Of a DNA stretch of 64,000 nucleotides, positions 8,253 to 17,320 are shown piece by piece. The translations under genes and the position numbers were made by a program. Below the pieces are notes generated by a model, which saw nothing but the letters and a program-made list of their open reading frames with translations, made no database searches and was not told where the DNA came from. Each line of letters starts with the position of its first letter. Positions within the stretch are counted from its first letter, which is position 1. Origin of the DNA: Acidobacteriaceae bacterium (GTDB taxonomy: Bacteria > Acidobacteriota > Terriglobia > Terriglobales > Acidobacteriaceae); the NCBI GenBank assembly GCA_003151155.1, contig PLWX01000256.1, positions 22,347-86,346 on the forward strand, read 5' to 3'.

Positions 8253-9173
8253 ATGAAACGTTTTAATACTGCCTGCCTGCTGCTTTTGTCGTGCGCGCTC
8301 TTCGCCCAGAATCCACCTGCGCCGCCAGACAACGATCCGCCGTTCGTTAAACAGGCACACCAGCTCATGCATGACGGCAAACTGGCGGACGCCCTCGCCG
8401 TCTTTCAGAACGAACTCAAGACTTCGCCCGATTCCGAAGAAGCCAACATCGGTGCCGGAGTCGTCCTCGATCTCATGCTGCGTGGCCCCGAGGCCCGGAA
8501 GTATTTCGATAAAGCTATCTCCGCCGCGCCCGATGATGAGAAACGAGCCGCTGCCAACCGTGGCATGGCCATGTCGTGGGCCTTTGAAGGCAACTGTCAG
8601 ATGACGGTGCAGTATGAACAGAAAATTCTTGACTACGCCAAAGCGAAGGCCGACTACTTTCGCGCTGGAGAAATCGCCGACGAAGAGGCACGAGTCTGCC
8701 TCGACGGCAACGATGTCGAGACCGGGGTGATCTGGTACAAGGAAGGCCACGAACTCGGTCTTAGAGAACCCAATATCACGGATGCGCGCAAAGATCTCTG
8801 GAACTTCCGCTGGGAACATGCGCAGGCCCGTGCCGCTTCGAAATTGCACGAAGAAGATGATCCCAAGCAGCACATTGCTGCTGCCAAGGCGATTCTCGAT
8901 AAGGGCAGGAATCCGCAGCAGGTGCAGTTTCTGCCCGCCCTCATTGGCTACGTTGCTTTCTATCAGCAGGACTACAAGACTGCACTCGATAACCTGCTGA
9001 AGGCTAATCAGAACGATCCCTTCATCCAATGCCTGACCGCGGAGACCTACGAAGCCCTCGGCGAGAAAGATAAAGCCAGGGAGTTCTATACGAAAGCCGC
9101 GGCCGCTACCGGACACAACCCGGCGGCAGCTTACGCGGTCCCGCTGGCGAAGCGAAAATTAGGAATCAAGTAG
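8253..9173 (+). CDS. secreted TPR-repeat protein
   Basis: The track starts at 8097 inside the repeat element; the real start is ATG 8253, which gives a signal peptide (MKRFNTACLLLLSCALFAQ) and 306 residues. Tetratricopeptide-type helices follow: AHQLMHDGKLADALAVFQNELKTSPDSEEANIGAGVVLD, later ALIGYVAFYQQDYKTALDNLLKANQNDPFIQCLTAETYEALGEKDKAREFYTKAAA. Expected role is periplasmic protein-protein scaffolding; no partner is indicated by the neighbours. Confidence 0.85.
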   Translation: MKRFNTACLLLLSCALFAQNPPAPPDNDPPFVKQAHQLMHDGKLADALAVFQNELKTSPDSEEANIGAGVVLDLMLRGPEARKYFDKAISAAPDDEKRAAANRGMAMSWAFEGNCQMTVQYEQKILDYAKAKADYFRAGEIADEEARVCLDGNDVETGVIWYKEGHELGLREPNITDARKDLWNFRWEHAQARAASKLHEEDDPKQHIAAAKAILDKGRNPQQVQFLPALIGYVAFYQQDYKTALDNLLKANQNDPFIQCLTAETYEALGEKDKAREFYTKAAAATGHNPAAAYAVPLAKRKLGIK

Positions 9174-9174
9174 C

Positions 9175-9669
9175 TTAGCGGCAATGGGTGGAGAGATACT
9201 GCAGGAATCGCGCGGCGCCTTCGTGATGCTCTTCGTTTACCCAATCGGGGATGTACGCCACAGCTTGACCGCACACGCTGAAGGAATCGCCCATTGCCTT
9301 GCGCAAATCCGGCACATCCGGCAGCTCCGCCGCCGACTTCAGTAGATAGAGATCGACCTGCGCGCTCTTAGCCTTATCCAGGAGGTCCGAAGCCGCGTCA
9401 TTTGTCGTGTTTGCGGCAATCACGAAAGGCGTTCCGCCGTTAAGGCGTGGATCGGTAAACGAAAACTCGCGCTCCGACTGCCGCAGCTTTTCGGTGCTTG
9501 GATTTTGCGCAGAGTAAAGCACGCGCACGCGGAATTCGGGAATGTGCCTGCGGCAAGCCAGGCCACTAATCAGGATCGCGACGAAAAGGAGACCGTACTT
9601 CACGAGCGGAGCATAACGCAAAGCACAGCGCGGATGCCTGTCTCGCATCCGCACCGTCAATAGCCGCAC
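9175..9669 (-). CDS. small exported protein, possibly lipid-anchored
   Basis: Last gene of the XRE-NfeD-flotillin-PspA run. The GTG at 9669 overlaps the pspA stop (TAGTG), suggesting translational coupling; an alternative GTG at 9603 gives a cleaner signal, KYGLLFVAILISGLAC, with a Cys in a weak lipobox position. The rest (RVRVLYSAQNPSTEKL, FVIAANTTNDAASDLLDKAKSAQVDLYLLKSA, IPDWVNEEHHEGAARFLQYLS) faintly resembles the C-terminal part of an extracellular solute-binding protein. I cannot name a family. Its position suggests an envelope role with PspA and flotillin. Confidence 0.6.
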   Translation of the reverse strand: MRLLTVRMRDRHPRCALRYAPLVKYGLLFVAILISGLACRRHIPEFRVRVLYSAQNPSTEKLRQSEREFSFTDPRLNGGTPFVIAANTTNDAASDLLDKAKSAQVDLYLLKSAAELPDVPDLRKAMGDSFSVCGQAVAYIPDWVNEEHHEGAARFLQYLSTHCR

Positions 9670-10337
9670 TACGCCTTAAGCGCCTTGCGCCCTTTCATCT
9701 CGGTCAATAGCTTGTCGATCTGGTCGTCTTTTTCCAGAACCGCCAATCGATGCTCGATGTCGTCTCCCGCAACCACTTCCACCCGCGCCTGGCTCGAGGC
9801 TTCGGCCCGCTGAATGCGAGACTTCATCCTCTCCAGTGTCGCCACCTTGTTGCGATCGTCGACTGCCAATTGTGCGCTAGTCGCCTTATCCATCGAACGG
9901 GCGCGTCGCGATTGCGCAAGCAACACATCGACCTTGGCGTGGGCTTCGGCGAGCTTCGCGTCCAGTTTCTGCAGTGCGCCTTTTAGGATTTCCACCTGGG
10001 TGCGCTGATCGGAAAGTTGTTCATCGAAGCTCGCTGTGAATTGCTTGTAACTCAGCGCGCGATCGAGCGCGGCGCGCGCCAGGTCGTCCTGCTTCTTATC
10101 GACGGCAAGTTCGGCTTTGCGCATCCACTCGACCTCCTTGTCGGCGTTTTCCTTCTTCTTCTTTTCCAGCAGGTGTAGATCGGCGATGGCAATGGCCACC
10201 TGCGTCTTCACTTGCAGGAACTGATTCTGCATGTCGAGAATGATCTGCTTGAGCAGCTTCTCAGGATTTTCCGCCCGGTCGACCATGTCGTTCAAGTTCG
10301 CCCGGATGAGTGTGCCTACGCGTTCTAGCAATGCCAT
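9669..10337 (-). CDS. pspA: PspA/IM30 family membrane-repair protein
   Basis: 222 residues, nearly all helix and coiled coil, with the PspA/Vipp1 N-terminal pattern LLERVGTLIRANLNDMVDRAENPEKLLKQIILDMQNQF. PspA/IM30 proteins are ESCRT-III-like, bind stressed inner membrane and form rods or rings. There is no membrane segment, as expected. The gene lies 59 bp downstream of a flotillin and is coupled to a small exported protein. PspA near flotillin/NfeD genes is known in other bacteria; here no pspF or pspBC is present and regulation probably comes from the XRE gene at the operon head. Confidence 0.92.
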   Translation of the reverse strand: MALLERVGTLIRANLNDMVDRAENPEKLLKQIILDMQNQFLQVKTQVAIAIADLHLLEKKKKENADKEVEWMRKAELAVDKKQDDLARAALDRALSYKQFTASFDEQLSDQRTQVEILKGALQKLDAKLAEAHAKVDVLLAQSRRARSMDKATSAQLAVDDRNKVATLERMKSRIQRAEASSQARVEVVAGDDIEHRLAVLEKDDQIDKLLTEMKGRKALKA

Positions 10338-10396
10338 GACGATCTCCTTCTAATTCCGAAATGGGCGGAGATCCCTTAGATCTCCGCGCGAGTTCC

Positions 10397-11869
10397 TTAC
10401 GCCCCTGCCCCTTTAGCCTTCGAACTGCCGTCCGGCGGCAACACGTCGGGTTTCGGCGCTTTGTCTCCGATGGTGCGAACCTTTGCGAACAGATCTTCCA
10501 TCTTCATTCCACTCAACGCCTCGAAAAGTGCGGGTACCTGCGCCGCCATCTCCGTGATGTCGCCGGTAATCTTGTGCGCGCCTGCGGAGCTGCCGTTGCC
10601 GGTCGACACGATGGTGATCTTGTCGACCTGGCTCAGGGGCGTGGCCAGAGCGCGAACGATCTCCGGCATGCTGCTGAGCAGTTTGTCGATGACCGCTGCC
10701 TGGTTGTATTCCTGGAAGGCCTCGGCCTTCACGTTCATCGCCTTGGCCTCCGCTTCACCTTTCTTGAAGATGATCTCGGCCTCGGCTTCGCCCTGCGCTC
10801 GGATTGACGCAGAACGTCCCTCGGCTTCACTCATCAGGCGCTGCCGTTCGGCGCTGGCCAGCGTCTCGATGCGCGCGCGTTCGATTTCGGCGCCCTTAAG
10901 CACGGTCGCGATCAGCTCCTTCTCGTGACGCAGGATTTCCTGCTCTTGCACCTTCACCTGTTCCTGCTTCTCGATCTGCTGCACCTTCACGCTCTCAGCG
11001 ATCACCTGCTGCTGCATGATGTTGGTCTGAATCTCGTAGGCCTTATCCGCCTGCGCCTGTTGCTTCTTGACCATCTCGTTGTACGAGGCTCGCTTCACTT
11101 CGAGATCGCGCTGCGCCTCGGCTTGTTTCGCCTGCGAAGCCGTCTCTGCGAATACTCGCTCCTGGTCGGCTTGCGCACGGGCGACGGCTGCTTCGCGCGT
11201 CGCGGCTGCCTGCTTGATCGCCGTGTCGCGGTCCGCTTCCGCGGTGGCGATATCCGCATCGCGCTTAATCCGCGCAATGTCCGGACGCCCCATGTTGGTG
11301 ATGTATTGATTCTTGTCGCGCACTTCCTTAATCGTGAAGCTGATGACCTCGAGCCCCATCTTGCTCATATCGTCCGCGCAAGTCGCGCGCATGCGATCGC
11401 CCACCATCTCCGGCTGCTTCACAATCTCTTCCACCGTGAGCTGCCCAATGATGCCGCGCAGGTGACCTTCCATCACCAGGCGGATCAGCCCTTCGCGCTG
11501 TTGCGGGGTCTTGGTCAGGAATTGTTCGGAAGCGGTGGTGATCGAAACCGGGTCCGACTTCACCTTGATCTGCGCTACGGCTTCCACGGTCACCGCAACG
11601 CCCTGTTTGGTGTAGAGGTCCTGCTGCGGCGCCACGTCGAACGACATTAGTTCGAGCGAAAGCTGCAGGCAATTTTCAACCATCGGCCAGATTACTGTGC
11701 CTTTGCCCTTGATGATCCGCGTACCGCGAATGCCATACACGATCAGCGCTTCATGCGGTCCCGCTTTGCGGAACAACCGCGCTACCATCATCATCAAGAA
11801 GATGATGGCCACCACAGCCAGGCCGACGATCACCATGATATCGGTAGGAATTTTCGACAGAATGTTCAT
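10397..11869 (-). CDS. flotillin-like SPFH/band 7 protein
   Basis: The track begins at 11920; ATG 11869 follows AAGGGGG and opens on the membrane anchor (MVIVGLAVVAIIFLMMMVARLF), giving 490 residues. Then comes the SPFH domain (about 35-200; EALIVYGIRGTRIIKGKGTVIWP, DMSKMGLEVISFTIKEVRDK), a long Ala/Glu/Gln coiled coil (AEADRDTAIKQAAATREAAVARAQAD...) and the flotillin C-terminus (KAEAFQEYNQAAVIDKLLSSMPEIVRALATPL). Flotillins organise ordered membrane domains. Its neighbours NfeD-like and PspA-like proteins support that role. Spaced 88 bp from the upstream gene. Confidence 0.93.
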   Translation of the reverse strand: MNILSKIPTDIMVIVGLAVVAIIFLMMMVARLFRKAGPHEALIVYGIRGTRIIKGKGTVIWPMVENCLQLSLELMSFDVAPQQDLYTKQGVAVTVEAVAQIKVKSDPVSITTASEQFLTKTPQQREGLIRLVMEGHLRGIIGQLTVEEIVKQPEMVGDRMRATCADDMSKMGLEVISFTIKEVRDKNQYITNMGRPDIARIKRDADIATAEADRDTAIKQAAATREAAVARAQADQERVFAETASQAKQAEAQRDLEVKRASYNEMVKKQQAQADKAYEIQTNIMQQQVIAESVKVQQIEKQEQVKVQEQEILRHEKELIATVLKGAEIERARIETLASAERQRLMSEAEGRSASIRAQGEAEAEIIFKKGEAEAKAMNVKAEAFQEYNQAAVIDKLLSSMPEIVRALATPLSQVDKITIVSTGNGSSAGAHKITGDITEMAAQVPALFEALSGMKMEDLFAKVRTIGDKAPKPDVLPPDGSSKAKGAGA

Positions 11870-11957
11870 ACGCCCCCTTAGGCGAACATCAAGTACGATC
11901 TGACAACACGGGCCTTCCATCGCCCGCTGGAACTTTTTCTATTTCGCACATCGACAA

Positions 11958-12869
11958 CTAACGATGTGCGACCGGAGTCATCCGCTCCATCTCGGCCACC
12001 ATCCGGTCAGTCGCTGCCAGGCCGAGATAAATCTGGTCCCCTGAAAGTGTCTGCACGTGCACGCAGCGGTTGCCACCCCAGATATAAGCTCGCATCCTGC
12101 CGATTCCCCGAATGCCCCACCCGCCAAAATCGCGCAATGGATTGCAGCTCTCGGCGCGGTAGGTCACGATCTCCTGCGCCGGCACAAACCGTAGCGTCAG
12201 TCCCAGCGTGCGGATCTCCAGCCCCGCAGTGGTGATGCGATACCGAAATCCCGACGCAGCCCACATCGCGCAGCCCAGCATTACTACTCCAATAATTACC
12301 GGCACGGTTTGCGACGGACCGTGCAGGTCAAGTAGCAAGCTCGCGGCGAACAACCCGATCGCGATCACCAGGAAAATCATCCCCATAACCGGCGACGCAT
12401 GTGTCTCTTCGGCGATGAGCTCTCCATATTCGCGTGCCCGCTTGCGAGCGACTCTGATCCTGCCCACTTCGCCGATCAGCAGCGCCCCGCCCATGATCAA
12501 GCTCCAAATTCCGAGGGGAAAGTCCAGCGTCTTTGCTTCGCCCAGATTTACCCGCAGCGTCCCATGCGTGATCCCGAAAAGAATTCCGATTCCCCAGAAC
12601 TCCGCTACCATCACCAGCCAGCCCAACCCGCTGATCTGCGGAAATCGGCTGAGAATAAAAGTGAACAGGCAGAGCAAGCCGAACGCGACTCCAATAATCG
12701 TCGTAAACACCGGCTGTTTCGGTGCAAATCCGTTGGCGACGCCCGCTGCATTGAAGTGCGACGCGATCACCGCCGGCAGGCTGTCATAGGCGCGCCAGAT
12801 ATCCAGCAGCATGGCTACGAACGCCAGCCACGGCACCATCATCGCGATACGCCAGTTTCTGCTGCACAT
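11958..12869 (-). CDS. DUF1648-type integral membrane protein with PH-like tail
   Basis: 303 residues with at least five membrane segments. The N-terminus (LPAVIASHFNAAGVANGFAPKQ) matches the DUF1648 pattern: helix, then HFNxxGxxxG, then helix. After two more helices (FLVIAIGLFAASLLLDL and VPVIIGVVMLGCAMWAASG) the C-terminal 90 residues look like a bacterial PH-type domain (YRITTAGLEIRTLGLTLRFVPAQEIVTY ... VHVQTLSGDQIYLGLA). The gene lies 10 bp downstream of the NfeD-like gene, in the same operon. Role unknown; envelope function inferred from context. Confidence 0.75.
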   Translation of the reverse strand: MCSRNWRIAMMVPWLAFVAMLLDIWRAYDSLPAVIASHFNAAGVANGFAPKQPVFTTIIGVAFGLLCLFTFILSRFPQISGLGWLVMVAEFWGIGILFGITHGTLRVNLGEAKTLDFPLGIWSLIMGGALLIGEVGRIRVARKRAREYGELIAEETHASPVMGMIFLVIAIGLFAASLLLDLHGPSQTVPVIIGVVMLGCAMWAASGFRYRITTAGLEIRTLGLTLRFVPAQEIVTYRAESCNPLRDFGGWGIRGIGRMRAYIWGGNRCVHVQTLSGDQIYLGLAATDRMVAEMERMTPVAHR

Positions 12870-12879
12870 AACTTGCTCC

Positions 12880-13479
12880 TTACTTGCCGTCCTGCATTTG
12901 CGCGGTCTGCGAAGTCGAGCCCTCTAGCTCATCCCAGCGACGTACATACGCGATACCCTTCTCGTAACGCGTGACCACGACTTCAATTCCCTTTCCAATC
13001 GGATCTCCGGTATCGCTGCGTGCACCGCACACCTGGCGCACACCTTCCTGCACGAAGACCAGTTCCCCGGTGCCACCCTGCCGGATCGGATTGGTGATCT
13101 GTCCCAGCACACCGACTTTCTCGTAATCTGCCGGATCAAGTTCGCCAGTATCTTTCATCAGCACTTTGGCCAGGAACCAGAACACCGTGGCGCCTCCGAC
13201 GAAACCACACAACGTTGCCAATAGAACGATCCACGTCCCCAGCGCCGCTTCATGCACGCTGAGCAAGTAACCCGCACCTCCAAACCATGCGAGAAACGCC
13301 ATGATCGTCGCGAAGTTAAACGGCGAGACTCCGCCCTTCAGCGCCGGCCCGTGCCCATGTGCCCCGTGGCCAAAGTGAAAATGTCCATGTGGCAGGTGCA
13401 CGCTGCCGGAGACGAACGAGAAAATGCTCAGCAGCAACCCGACGAGAAAACAGACGAGATAAAAAGCTGTCCAGCTCAT
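12880..13479 (-). CDS. NfeD-like membrane protein
   Basis: 199 residues: N-terminal helix, a His/Gly-rich loop (SVHLPHGHFHFGHGAHGHG) that could bind metal, two further helices, then a soluble beta domain (KVGVLGQITNPIRQGGTGELVFVQEGVRQVCGARSDTGDPIGKGIEVVVTRYEKGIAYVRRWDE) with the OB-fold character of NfeD C-termini. NfeD proteins are established partners of SPFH proteins; the flotillin lies two genes downstream. The His-rich loop is not a usual family feature. The gene lies 27 bp after the XRE regulator. Confidence 0.8.
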   Translation of the reverse strand: MSWTAFYLVCFLVGLLLSIFSFVSGSVHLPHGHFHFGHGAHGHGPALKGGVSPFNFATIMAFLAWFGGAGYLLSVHEAALGTWIVLLATLCGFVGGATVFWFLAKVLMKDTGELDPADYEKVGVLGQITNPIRQGGTGELVFVQEGVRQVCGARSDTGDPIGKGIEVVVTRYEKGIAYVRRWDELEGSTSQTAQMQDGK

Positions 13480-13506
13480 AACCCTTCTCCGCCCGCTCGC
13501 GCGGCC

Positions 13507-14010
13507 TTACACCATCGACCCATAACCCGTTTCCGCTTTTCGCGGATTCGACTGCAAAACTTCCAGCAACCGCTCCACCAGATCCGGCGTCTCGAGAATG
13601 TGCCCGAGCAACACGAGGCAGCGACGCGAATCCGGATGCTTCGCCAATTGCAGCAGTGCATGCGCCACCTTGGGATCGCGACGGAATCGCTCGGCCCCGC
13701 TGATCAGCCACAGGTCCAACTGGTCTTCCATCACCCGCACATCCGAGGTCAGGTGCTCGTGATACCCATCCGGGTCATCGACGAGGTAGCCCGGATGCAC
13801 CTTGAAAAACCTTGCCAGCAACAAACGCGTCTGGTTGGTCAGGTGCGGCCGTGCCCCGCTCTCGATCTGCGAAAGGTACGACTGGCTGATGCTCTGCCCG
13901 GCTTCCTCGCGAATCGCTCGGGCGAGTTCCTGCTGTGTCATCTCGCGATCCAGGCCCCGAAGCGTGCCTTCGACCTCACGCAAGTAGCGAATTTTTTCTC
14001 CAAGTCTCAT
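13507..14010 (-). CDS. XRE-family transcriptional regulator
   Basis: The track begins at 14076, but the promoter at 14024-14052 rules that out; ATG 14010 (MRLGEKIRYLREVEG) gives 167 residues. The N-terminal HTH_3/XRE domain is clear (MTQQELARAIREEAGQSISQSYLSQIESGARPHLTNQTRLLLARFF), then a helical C-terminal region with acidic and Leu-rich segments. First gene of the NfeD-flotillin-PspA run. With a predicted transcription start about 7 bases before the ATG, the message would be nearly leaderless. An inverted repeat overlaps the promoter, so autoregulation is likely. Confidence 0.88.
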   Translation of the reverse strand: MRLGEKIRYLREVEGTLRGLDREMTQQELARAIREEAGQSISQSYLSQIESGARPHLTNQTRLLLARFFKVHPGYLVDDPDGYHEHLTSDVRVMEDQLDLWLISGAERFRRDPKVAHALLQLAKHPDSRRCLVLLGHILETPDLVERLLEVLQSNPRKAETGYGSMV

Positions 14011-14016
14011 ATAACG

Positions 14017-14040
14017 GATTGCAATTATCATATTGCAATC
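14017..14040. promoter_or_regulatory. probable operator of the XRE regulator
   Basis: GATTGCAA-N8-TTGCAATC is a perfect 8-bp inverted repeat covering the -10 element and part of the spacer of the XRE promoter. Bound repressor would occlude RNA polymerase. Binding by the encoded XRE protein is inference. Confidence 0.6.
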
Positions 14041-14052
14041 TGCGATTGTCAA
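14024..14052 (-). promoter_or_regulatory. sigma-70 promoter of the XRE-flotillin-PspA operon
   Basis: Read on the minus strand: TTGACA, 17-bp spacer, GATAAT. The -35 is a perfect consensus and the -10 matches 5 of 6 with optimal spacing. The -10 ends 13 bases before the ATG at 14010, giving an extremely short leader. Confidence 0.7.
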
Positions 14053-14225
14053 GAATTCTATCTCCCGGCGGCTCAATCAGCTATCCGCTCTCCCAGAACA
14101 GGCCCTCCGAAAATCTCTCGATAAAAGGAGATGTATTCGTTGCAGCTGAACGCTAGAATAACGATTAGCTACTCGCTACGACGCGTCTGTGCACCGCGCC
14201 GTCCAGATCGGAGTAATTCCCCTTC

Positions 14226-16418
14226 ATGAAATCTCCTGTGCGATTCGCAGTCCTTGTCGTGCTTGCGTTCCTTGCCATCAACCTTCCTGTAACTTGCCAA
14301 AATACAGATGCAGGTCTCCAAAACAAGCCCTGGATGAACCGCAACCTTGCGCCCGATGAACGCGCCAATCTCGTTCTCAAAGAGATGACGCTCGACGAGA
14401 AGATCAATCTCGTCCACGGTCAGGGTATGGAAGGTTTCGGTCGTCCCGTGCCGCACTCCGAGCTCGGCAATGGCGGGGCTGGATTTGTACTCGGAGTTGA
14501 GAGATTAGGAATTCCCATCATCCAGATGAGCGACGCCGCCTATGGCGTTCGGCAGAGCGCGGTCAACGGCCGCTACTCCACGGCACTCCCTTCGAATGTT
14601 GGATCCGCCGCGAGCTGGGATCCGCAAGCTGCGTGTGAATACGGTGCGTTGATTGGCAGGGAGCTTCGCGCCCAGGGCTACAACATGACTCTTGGCGGTG
14701 GCGTAAACCTGACCCGCGAACCACGCAACGGCCGCACCTTCGAATACATGGGAGAAGACCCGGTCCTCGCCGGAACGCTGGTTGGCAACCGAATTCGTTG
14801 CGAACAGGCACAGCATGTGCTCGGCGATATCAAACACTACGCGGTCAACGATCAGGAGAGTGGCCGCACCGAAGTGAATGTCGTCATCAGCCATCGTGCG
14901 ATGCGCGAATCCGATCTGCTGGCTTTCGAAATCGGCCTCGAGATCGGCCAGCCCGCCGGTGTCATGTGTTCTTACAACCTGGTGAATGGCGATTACGCCT
15001 GCGAGAACAAGTATCTGCTCAAGGATGTTCTGAAAGGCGACTGGAAGTTCAAGGGTTTTGTCCTCTCCGATTGGGGCGCGACCCACAGCACCGAGAAGGC
15101 TTCAGCAGCTGGTCTCGATAACGAGGAACCTTTCGGCGACCTCTTCGGCGACAAACTCAAGGCGGCAGTGCAATCTGGAAAGGTATCGCAGGCCGAGCTT
15201 GACGATCACGTTCGCCGCATTCTCCGCTCCGAGTTTGCGGCTGGAATTGTGGACAACCCGATGCGCCGCTCTGTAGTGGATGTCGACGCCGAGCAGGAAA
15301 TCGCGCGGAAGCTCGAAGAAAGCAGCATCGTGCTTCTGAAAAATCGCGACAACGTTTTACCGCTTGACCGGAACAAAGTGCATTCCATTGCTGTCATCGG
15401 AGAACACGCCGATTACGGCATGATCTCCGGGGGCGGCTCCGCCCAAGTCGACCCTCCGGGGCAGGCGCATGAATGGCAGGCGCAGGTCTGGTTCCCAACC
15501 TCACCTATGAAAGCCCTACAGGCAAAAGCCCCCGGCGCAAAGGTGCAATTCAACTCCGGAGCGGATACCTCGAGCGCCGCGGCCCTCGCTAAACAATCCG
15601 ACGTGGCGATCGTATTCGTGCGTCAGTGGATCAGTGAAGGCATGGATCTGCCCAACCTTTCACTACCAAACCATCAGGACGCGTTGATCGAGAAAGTGGC
15701 TGCTACCAATCCGCATACCATCGTTGTGCTCGAGTCGGGAACCGCCGTTACCATGCCGTGGCTCGATCACGTCAGCGGTATCGTAGAAGCCTGGTACGGG
15801 GGCAGCAAAGGCGCCGATGCCGTTGCCAACGTTCTCTTCGGAGACGTCAATCCGTCGGGCAAGCTCCCGATGACGTTCCCGCGAAGTATCGAAGACTTGC
15901 CGCATTCGAAACTTTCCGAGCCGCCCACCGGCTTGAAAGACCCTTCGACCGAAAAACATCCAGAACTTGCGAGGGCCACCTTCTCCGTCAATTACGACGA
16001 AGGCTTGAAAGTCGGCTACAAGTGGTACGACGCAGAAAAGAAGCCCGTGCTCTTCCCCTTCGGCTTTGGACTGTCATACACGCAATTCGCGTACAGCGAC
16101 TTGAAAGTGTCTTCCGGTCCTTCGACGCAAGTGAGCTTCCTGGTCAAAAACACAGGAACTCGCGCCGGCGAAGAGGTCGCCGAGGTTTACGCAGCGTTGC
16201 CCGCAAATGCCGGCGAGCCGCCCAAACGCCTTGTGGGATGGAGCAAGGTCTCTCTTCAACCCGGAGAATCCAGGCAAGTCACAGTCACTATTCCTGCAAA
16301 GTATTTGTCCATCTTCGATGAACACGAGAATGCCTGGAAGCTTCTTCCCGGCAGCTACAACTTCCTGGTCGGCGGATCATCGCAAGATCTTCCACTCAAG
16401 CAGGATGCGACTTTCTAG
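14226..16418 (+). CDS. secreted glycoside hydrolase family 3 (beta-glucosidase type)
   Basis: 730 residues. Signal peptide to about residue 24 (FAVLVVLAFLAINLPVTCQ). GH3 N-terminal barrel with GGGVNLTREPRNGRTFEYMGEDPVLAG and the nucleophile motif GFVLSDWGATHS (Asp near 282), then the alpha/beta sandwich (SIVLLKNRDNVLPLDRNKVHSIAVIGEHAD) and a C-terminal fibronectin III-like domain (ISGP..VSFLVKNTGTRAGEEVAEVYA). Such enzymes remove terminal beta-linked glucose or xylose from oligosaccharides; the substrate is not determined. Monocistronic with a strong terminator after it, consistent with plant-polymer use by soil acidobacteria. Confidence 0.93.
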   Translation: MKSPVRFAVLVVLAFLAINLPVTCQNTDAGLQNKPWMNRNLAPDERANLVLKEMTLDEKINLVHGQGMEGFGRPVPHSELGNGGAGFVLGVERLGIPIIQMSDAAYGVRQSAVNGRYSTALPSNVGSAASWDPQAACEYGALIGRELRAQGYNMTLGGGVNLTREPRNGRTFEYMGEDPVLAGTLVGNRIRCEQAQHVLGDIKHYAVNDQESGRTEVNVVISHRAMRESDLLAFEIGLEIGQPAGVMCSYNLVNGDYACENKYLLKDVLKGDWKFKGFVLSDWGATHSTEKASAAGLDNEEPFGDLFGDKLKAAVQSGKVSQAELDDHVRRILRSEFAAGIVDNPMRRSVVDVDAEQEIARKLEESSIVLLKNRDNVLPLDRNKVHSIAVIGEHADYGMISGGGSAQVDPPGQAHEWQAQVWFPTSPMKALQAKAPGAKVQFNSGADTSSAAALAKQSDVAIVFVRQWISEGMDLPNLSLPNHQDALIEKVAATNPHTIVVLESGTAVTMPWLDHVSGIVEAWYGGSKGADAVANVLFGDVNPSGKLPMTFPRSIEDLPHSKLSEPPTGLKDPSTEKHPELARATFSVNYDEGLKVGYKWYDAEKKPVLFPFGFGLSYTQFAYSDLKVSSGPSTQVSFLVKNTGTRAGEEVAEVYAALPANAGEPPKRLVGWSKVSLQPGESRQVTVTIPAKYLSIFDEHENAWKLLPGSYNFLVGGSSQDLPLKQDATF

Positions 16419-16492: not shown

Positions 16493-16819
16493 CTAGCGGT
16501 CATCCCAATCGCGATGGTGCTCGCGCCACTCGTGACGCTCATGCTCCAACCGCTCGCGGCGTACATGCTCCTCATGCTGCCAATGTCGATCGCGGTCGTA
16601 GTTCCGGTAATATCGGTCGCCGTCGTAGTTGCGGTAGTAGCCGTTATACGGAGCCTGATAGTAGCCGCCGTTATACACGCGGGTCGTGTACGAATACCCA
16701 TTGCTCACGCAGGTCTGCCGGTCGCCGTCGCGGTCGAGATAGCAATACCCCTCTTGCGCCATCGCGGGCAGGGCCAACGCTGCAATCGTTGCAAGGCCAA
16801 GAATAATTTTCGTCTTCAT
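16493..16819 (-). CDS. small secreted Tyr/Arg/Asp-rich protein, paralogue A
   Basis: The start is ATG 16819 (MKTKIILGLATIAALALPAMAQEG), not the TTG at 16882; the precursor is 108 residues with a signal peptide cleaved after AMA. The mature part is low complexity: YNGYYRNYDGDRYYRNYDRDRHWQHEEHVRRERLEHERHEWREHHRDWDDR, with two Cys near the start. A shorter paralogue with an almost identical signal peptide lies just upstream (17036-17320). Charged, aromatic-rich tail suggests a disordered surface or periplasmic protein; function unknown. Confidence 0.7.
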   Translation of the reverse strand: MKTKIILGLATIAALALPAMAQEGYCYLDRDGDRQTCVSNGYSYTTRVYNGGYYQAPYNGYYRNYDGDRYYRNYDRDRHWQHEEHVRRERLEHERHEWREHHRDWDDR

Positions 16820-16985
16820 GATTTTCCTTGCTTGATGTTGAGCGGTCACGCTGCTCCGTTGGCCGTCTCTCGTGTTCAGCAAAAGAAACCCATCGCTGCG
16901 CGCATAGTTGCGAGAAACGTTGACCCTACTCTGAACATATCCTTTCAGCCAATCTTCAGAAAGCCAGCAGTGACAAGGGTTTCAA
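16820..16985 (-). promoter_or_regulatory. leader region of paralogue A, conserved with paralogue B
   Basis: On the minus strand this leader shares ordered blocks with 17321-17466: TTTCTGAAG, GCTGAAAG, TAGGGTCA, CGCAACTA, GAGAGACGGCCAACGG and CAGCGTGACCGC. Conservation of non-coding sequence alongside diverged coding sequence points to shared control (promoter plus 5' UTR structure). Confidence 0.55.
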
Positions 16986-17035: not shown

Positions 17036-17320
17036 TTAGCGTCGGTAACCATCGTGCTCGCGGTACTCGCGATTCCTCTCCATCTGTTCCCGCCGCTCGC
17101 GTTGTTCTCGAGCTTGATTACGCCAGTAGTCATCGCGATCGTACGCGCGGAAATGATTGTCGCCATCGTAGCGGCGGTAGGCATCGGCGTCATAGCGATA
17201 GTTCTGCGTGTAAATCGCGCGCTGATCATCGCGATCGCGATACCGGTTTCCTTCTTCTGCCGTTGCCGGAAGAGCCAGAGCTGCCAGGGTTGCGAGACCA
17301 AGAACGATTTTCGTTTTCAT
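17036..17320 (-). CDS. small secreted Tyr/Arg/Asp-rich protein, paralogue B
   Basis: 94 residues beginning MKTKIVLGLATLAALALPATAEEGNRYRD, a clear signal peptide cleaved after ATA and nearly identical to that of paralogue A. The mature chain is 70 residues of RYDADAYRRYDGDNHFRAYDRDDYWRNQAREQRERREQMERNREYREHDGYRR: no Cys, highly charged, aromatic-rich. SD GGAGGAAG precedes the ATG. Tandem duplicate with paralogue A but each copy has its own leader and terminator, so they are separate transcripts. Function unknown. Confidence 0.7.
   Translation of the reverse strand: MKTKIVLGLATLAALALPATAEEGNRYRDRDDQRAIYTQNYRYDADAYRRYDGDNHFRAYDRDDYWRNQAREQRERREQMERNREYREHDGYRR

What the first reader, a model, noticed from the sequence alone, without database searches (positions are those of the whole stretch)
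9175..14052. Regulated membrane-integrity operon: XRE, NfeD-like, DUF1648 protein, flotillin, PspA, exported protein
Six same-strand genes combine three protein families linked to membrane domain organisation and repair (NfeD, SPFH/flotillin, PspA/IM30) with a dedicated XRE regulator and an unplaced DUF1648/PH-like membrane protein. NfeD-SPFH pairing and PspA near flotillin are known elsewhere; the full set with its own repressor-like control and a coupled exported partner (TAGTG) is not one I know. The His-rich loop in the NfeD-like protein suggests a metal input.
Basis: partly seen in the sequence, partly recalled or inferred. Interest (0 to 1): 0.6.

Follow-up and report, generated by a model that had tools for sequence, protein, structure and literature searches.

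The report
Acidobacterial membrane-repair operon with conserved operator
These genes are a soil-bacterium version of a known membrane-protection operon (PspA, flotillin and a flotillin partner); the new part is a strongly conserved double DNA site at its start, through which the operon's own regulator probably switches it on and off.

Summary
All six genes are real, on the minus strand and in the stated order. The core, XRE–NfeD/YuaF-like–flotillin–PspA, is not unique. It recurs in the family (86/86 PspA loci have the flotillin, 83 the NfeD-like gene; 84 XRE homologues across the survey) and in 80 named acidobacterial loci, including subdivision 3. It was already predicted in silico as the Acidobacteriota Psp network (PMC9239133), so the novelty claim fails for the core. 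The DUF1648 gene is an optional insert (about 30% of loci). The exported gene is linked only in this genus, and its 'TAGTG' coupling is probably a mis-assigned start. The His-rich NfeD loop is real and conserved in 26/26 homologues (20% His against 0.9% elsewhere).

The new result is a conserved operator-promoter at the operon start: -35 TTGACA, two 15-bp dyads (ATTGCAA-W-TTGCAAT) 21 bp apart, a -10 between them, and often the ATG directly after the second dyad. It was found at 76/84 XRE genes and 75/78 further loci, once per genome, with almost none in controls. The XRE resembles EspR, which is autoregulated and binds TTTGC-core sites. Best reading: an autorepressed, single-target envelope-stress operon. 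Many relatives also encode a small glycine-zipper membrane protein between flotillin and PspA, absent here.

The parts
14011..14046 (-). Tandem-dyad operator: dyad 1 at 14032-14046 (ATCGCAGATTGCAAT), dyad 2 at 14011-14025 (ATTGCAATCCGTTAT), centres 21 bp apart
   Evidence: Conserved at 76/84 XRE promoters and 75/78 further loci; only tandem site in this genome
14024..14052 (-). Sigma-70-type promoter TTGACA-N17-GATAAT, overlapping both dyads; predicted leader of about 7 nt
   Evidence: Only promoter-like site found in 9000-14300, 11 of 12 consensus bases; the region as a whole is not enriched for such sites (1 found, 1.6 expected); position conserved in relatives
13507..14010 (-). XRE regulator, EspR-like HTH plus helical C-terminal domain
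   Evidence: Pfam HTH_3; EspR profile hits E=5.7e-7; top fold matches EspR
12880..13479 (-). NfeD/YuaF-like 3-TM protein with His-rich TM1-TM2 loop and OB-fold C-terminus
   Evidence: Profile match to YuaF 2k14; His loop in 26/26 homologues
11958..12869 (-). DUF1648 membrane protein with possible C-terminal PH-like domain; optional member
   Evidence: Pfam DUF1648; present in 26/86 operons; PH-like part weak
10397..11869 (-). Flotillin (FloT-like SPFH protein)
   Evidence: Band_7 and Flot, NCBIfam FloT E=2.9e-99, below its curated cut-off
9669..10337 (-). PspA/IM30 protein, single copy in the genome
   Evidence: Pfam PspA_IM30; genome search
9175..9603 (-). Small predicted lipoprotein, genus-specific neighbour; probable start GTG at 9603 rather than 9669
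   Evidence: Linked only in G226 (= L059) and the window; start and conserved Cys from comparison

Best explanation
This is the acidobacterial type of phage-shock (Psp) operon, controlled by its own XRE repressor. Proposed cycle: the EspR-like XRE protein binds two 15-bp dyads on one face of the DNA, covering the promoter up to the start codon, and so represses its own operon. Membrane stress relieves repression. The products then assemble a membrane platform, with the YuaF/NfeD-like protein and flotillin organising the membrane site and PspA coating and stabilising it; DUF1648 is an optional extra membrane part. Shown here: gene identities, conserved order, the conserved operator-promoter and its uniqueness per genome, EspR-like homology of the regulator, and the His-rich loop. 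Inferred: that XRE binds this site, that binding represses, the stress signal, and the physical assembly (by analogy with YdjI-PspA in B. subtilis, PMC8581546).
For: Conserved co-oriented order XRE-NfeD-[DUF1648]-Flot-PspA in 86 family loci and 80 named loci. The XRE and NfeD genes overlap by one base in 37 of 73 adjacent pairs. Operator-promoter at 76/84 XRE genes and 75/78 loci of a second collection (some genomes are shared between the two sets). In 1.4 Mb scanned there was one operon-start site per locus, a single weak hit elsewhere, and one hit in the reversed control. Across 120 genomes, 52 had a site, each at a single place, with zero control hits. Where a DUF1648-type gene precedes XRE (L072, L075), the site moves to the front of that gene. 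Own genome: no second tandem site. Regulator resembles EspR by profile and fold; EspR is autoregulated and recognises TTTGC cores (PMC3315491). Flotillin partner is YuaF-like.
Against: No expression or binding data exist. A few XRE promoters lack a clear site or score poorly. The site overlaps the promoter, so repression is likely, but activation or dual control is not excluded. In the window, dyad 2 is the weaker copy. The XRE model is only moderately confident (pLDDT 75) and no fold match reaches E<0.001. The stress signal is unknown.
Confidence: 0.72

Rival explanations
1. The operon is a metal- (or pH-) responsive membrane system: the His-rich loop of the NfeD-like protein binds metal or protons and gates the flotillin platform, and PspA is only an effector of that input.
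For: 7-11 histidines in the TM1-TM2 loop of 26/26 homologues, 20% against 0.9% in the rest of the protein. B. subtilis PspA-YdjI responds to alkali shock (PMC8581546).
Against: No metal transporter or metal regulator among the conserved operon members; loop length and spacing vary; no binding data.
Confidence: 0.25
2. XRE acts mainly as an architectural, nucleoid-type protein like EspR with many weak sites, and the operon promoter is just its best site.
For: Nearest structural relatives are EspR; single dyad-like sites with up to 2 mismatches occur at 57 places in the genome against 9 for the reversed pattern, though that control does not keep composition.
Against: Tandem sites occur once per genome, and the C-terminal domain differs in length from EspR.
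Confidence: 0.15
3. The gene run is a loose neighbourhood with independent transcripts.
For: Gaps of 250-400 bp between flotillin and pspA in some relatives.
Against: Those gaps often hold an extra small gene; order and orientation are conserved across many genera; the only good promoter in the region is the one before XRE.
Confidence: 0.08

Closest known systems
Acidobacteriota Psp network, predicted in silico (Phyletic Distribution and Diversification of the Psp system, PMC9239133)
   Same: PspA with band 7/FloT protein, NfeD partner and an HTH regulator in one operon; 11 of 19 acidobacterial PspA genes had band 7/Flot neighbours
   Different: The main text does not mention DUF1648; the passages read name no operator, small glycine-zipper protein or His-rich loop; data sets and figures were not readable here
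yuaF-floT (NfeD-flotillin) pair of Bacillus subtilis
   Same: YuaF-type OB-fold partner encoded just before a FloT-like flotillin
   Different: Here joined to PspA and an XRE regulator, with a His-rich loop
pspA-ydjGHI operon of Bacillus subtilis (PMC8581546)
   Same: PspA with an SPFH protein and membrane partners under stress control
   Different: There sigma-W controlled with YdjG/YdjH zinc-ribbon and TPM proteins; here an XRE regulator, true flotillin and NfeD
EspR of Mycobacterium tuberculosis (PMC3315491)
   Same: HTH and helical C-terminal fold, autoregulation, TTTGC-type core in the binding site
   Different: EspR has hundreds of sites genome-wide; here one tandem site per genome
CesT/Tir-PspA operons with TM-band 7-flotillin and YqiJ/YuaF proteins (PMC11237479)
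   Same: PspA with flotillin and YuaF-type 3-TM protein
   Different: Those have CesT/Tir chaperone and AAA+ ATPase genes, not found here

Membership tests
Acidobacteriota-type Psp operon | PspA gene | tested here: met
   PspA_IM30 E=2.3e-33
Acidobacteriota-type Psp operon | Band 7/Flot gene in the same operon | tested here: met
Acidobacteriota-type Psp operon | NfeD partner gene | tested here: met
   YuaF profile match E=2.8e-5
Acidobacteriota-type Psp operon | HTH regulator in the operon | tested here: met
   HTH_3; 84 loci
Acidobacteriota-type Psp operon | Induction by envelope stress | not testable with these tools
   No expression data
Proteobacterial pspABC-F system | PspB, PspC and the PspF sigma-54 activator in the operon | tested here: not met
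   None among the six genes by Pfam or NCBIfam; promoter is sigma-70 type; genome-wide PspB/C not searched
B. subtilis pspA-ydjGHI | YdjG/YdjH (zinc ribbon, TPM) membrane partners | tested here: not met
   Partners are NfeD-like and DUF1648
EspR family | EspR-like HTH and C-terminal dimerisation domain | tested here: inconclusive
   HTH part matches; whole-chain fold match weak, best E=4.7e-3
EspR family | Genome-wide nucleoid-type binding | not testable with these tools
   Sequence search gives one tandem site
DUF1648-PH membrane proteins | C-terminal PH fold | tested here: inconclusive
   bPH_5 E=0.14 in a homologue only; strand order fits but no block has a pLDDT above 60

The most novel reading that the evidence does not exclude
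A self-contained membrane-damage switch in which an EspR-like repressor on a tandem operator directly senses the state of its own products (for example, released when PspA, or the NfeD-flotillin platform, is recruited to damaged membrane), a further way of controlling PspA besides PspF/sigma-54 and sigma-W or LiaRS, with a small glycine-zipper membrane protein as an unrecognised PspA partner in many relatives.
Probability: 0.3. Interest if true: 0.65.

Novelty: new member of a known kind. Interest (0 to 1): 0.42.

Why it matters
Acidobacteriota are abundant in soils and their envelope-stress control is untested. The operon itself is a published in silico prediction, but a conserved operator gives that prediction a concrete, quickly testable handle: a defined 36-bp site, a defined regulator and one predicted target per genome. 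The conserved His-rich loop and the unannotated glycine-zipper protein point to possible inputs and partners for PspA-flotillin systems generally.

Tried and rejected
Exported protein as a conserved coupled partner: rejected (two linked genomes, unlinked relatives elsewhere, non-conserved start). A missed gene in the window between flotillin and pspA: looked for the glycine-zipper protein; the gap is 62 bp and the genome-wide search found none. Pfam for the exported protein: no hit even at E=10. A wider regulon of tandem operators: none found in this genome.

Full report
WHAT IS THERE. Six minus-strand genes run from 14010 down to 9175: XRE, NfeD-like, DUF1648, flotillin, PspA and a small exported protein. 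Pfam and NCBIfam confirm XRE, DUF1648, flotillin and PspA. The NfeD-like protein hits nothing alone, but a profile of 26 homologues finds the YuaF structure 2k14 at E=2.8e-5, and 14 of the 26 hit Pfam NfeD weakly. PspA is the only one in the genome.

IS IT CONSERVED. Neighbourhoods of 105 PspA genes, and three DUF1648 loci without PspA, from Acidobacteriota were fetched and annotated with profiles grown from the window proteins. In 86 loci of the same family (the window included), all have the flotillin, 83 the NfeD-like gene, and most the XRE gene directly before it; the commonest order is XRE-NfeD-Flot-PspA (52), then the same with DUF1648 inserted (14). In 20 loci from other families of the phylum only two have the flotillin-NfeD-PspA set (L152, L163). 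A separate search with the XRE profile returned 80 named acidobacterial loci, some labelled subdivision 3 or Bryobacterales; nearly all carry XRE-NfeD-Flot and, where the contig reaches, PspA. Some genomes occur in both sets. So the order is old and selected, not a local accident.

WHAT IS ALREADY PUBLISHED. PMC9239133 reports band 7/Flot next to pspA in 11 of 19 acidobacterial cases, names NfeD as the gene-neighbourhood partner and HTH regulators in the operon, and draws this as the Acidobacteriota Psp network. PMC11237479 describes related PspA-flotillin-YuaF operons.

THE OPERATOR. The start of the operon carries a composite site not named in the passages of these papers that were read. Aligning the DNA before 84 XRE genes gave, in 76, the pattern TTGAC-n-ATYGCAAWTTGCRAT-ATnAnT-ATYGCRATTTGCAAT, with the ATG start directly after it in 41. 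It is two 15-bp dyads whose centres lie 21 bp apart, about two helical turns, flanking the -10. In the window this is 14011-14046 with TTGACA-N17-GATAAT (14052-14024), the only promoter-like site in 5.3 kb (sites of this kind are not enriched over shuffles, so the weight rests on conservation). Scanning 1.4 Mb of fetched DNA returned the operon-start site and, beyond it, one weak hit; reversed sequences gave one hit. In L072 and L075, where another gene precedes XRE, the site sits before that gene. A second set gave 75 of 78. Across 120 family genomes the pattern occurs in 52, in each at one place, with no control hits; the 3-mismatch limit makes 52 a lower bound, and in a few fragmented genomes the site lies on a contig other than the one with pspA, which was not followed up. 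In this genome no second tandem site exists.

THE REGULATOR. The XRE profile finds EspR of M. tuberculosis (E=5.7e-7, HTH part only), and the best fold matches of its predicted structure are EspR, though none passes E<0.001. EspR is autoregulated and its consensus is TTTGC[TC][GA] (PMC3315491); the dyad contains the same TTTGC core. This supports, but does not prove, that XRE binds these dyads. Because the dyads run from the -35/-10 region to the start codon, repression is the likelier outcome.

OTHER PARTS. His-rich loop: 7-11 histidines between TM1 and TM2 in 26/26 homologues, 20% against 0.9% elsewhere; a metal or pH role is possible and untested. DUF1648: optional, 26 of 86 loci, some copies carrying only one half of the protein; the PH-like half is only hinted at. 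Exported gene: in the same-genus relative the region between pspA and this gene does not align with the window's first 22 codons; the shared start is a later GTG, and a hairpin lies between. The conserved Cys-Arg-Arg/Lys-His after a hydrophobic stretch suggests a lipoprotein (inference). Relatives in five other genomes are not next to psp.

A SMALL GENE IN RELATIVES. In 40 family loci a 50-70 residue, two-helix glycine-zipper protein lies between flotillin and pspA; all 44 matches in the fetched loci fall in that interval. It matches no Pfam family. In a 60-genome search most strong matches are at psp loci, with a few weak or other-contig matches elsewhere. It is absent from the window genome.

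VERDICT. An ordinary kind of operon with a well-supported and newly described control site. The mechanism beyond the operator is inference.

Noticed in passing
L061:5566-5778 (-), L070:7880-8098 (+) and 38 further loci: Unannotated 50-70 aa glycine-zipper two-helix membrane protein between flotillin and pspA in relatives; no Pfam family; absent in the window
   Followed up: partly
L062, L063, L065: DUF1648 homologues in three family genomes where no PspA was found at the locus, showing the DUF1648 protein also exists outside psp operons
   Followed up: no
L059 (G226), gap between flotillin and pspA: 273-bp gap filled with short repeats (translation CRSSRFVEAADLQKPQ...) instead of a gene; the G226 contig is 5,650,368 bp, the size I recall for Koribacter versatilis Ellin345
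   Followed up: no
window 16493-16882 and 17036-17320 (-): Two neighbouring, similar small exported proteins rich in Y, R, D and H with near-identical signal peptides (MKTKIILGLATIAALALPA...)
   Followed up: no
window 9625-9657 (-): 13-bp terminator-like hairpin just after the pspA stop, inside the first-reader reading frame of the exported gene; a different hairpin sits at the same place in L059
   Followed up: partly
L163: Three tandem pspA genes followed by NfeD-like and flotillin genes in another acidobacterial family
   Followed up: no
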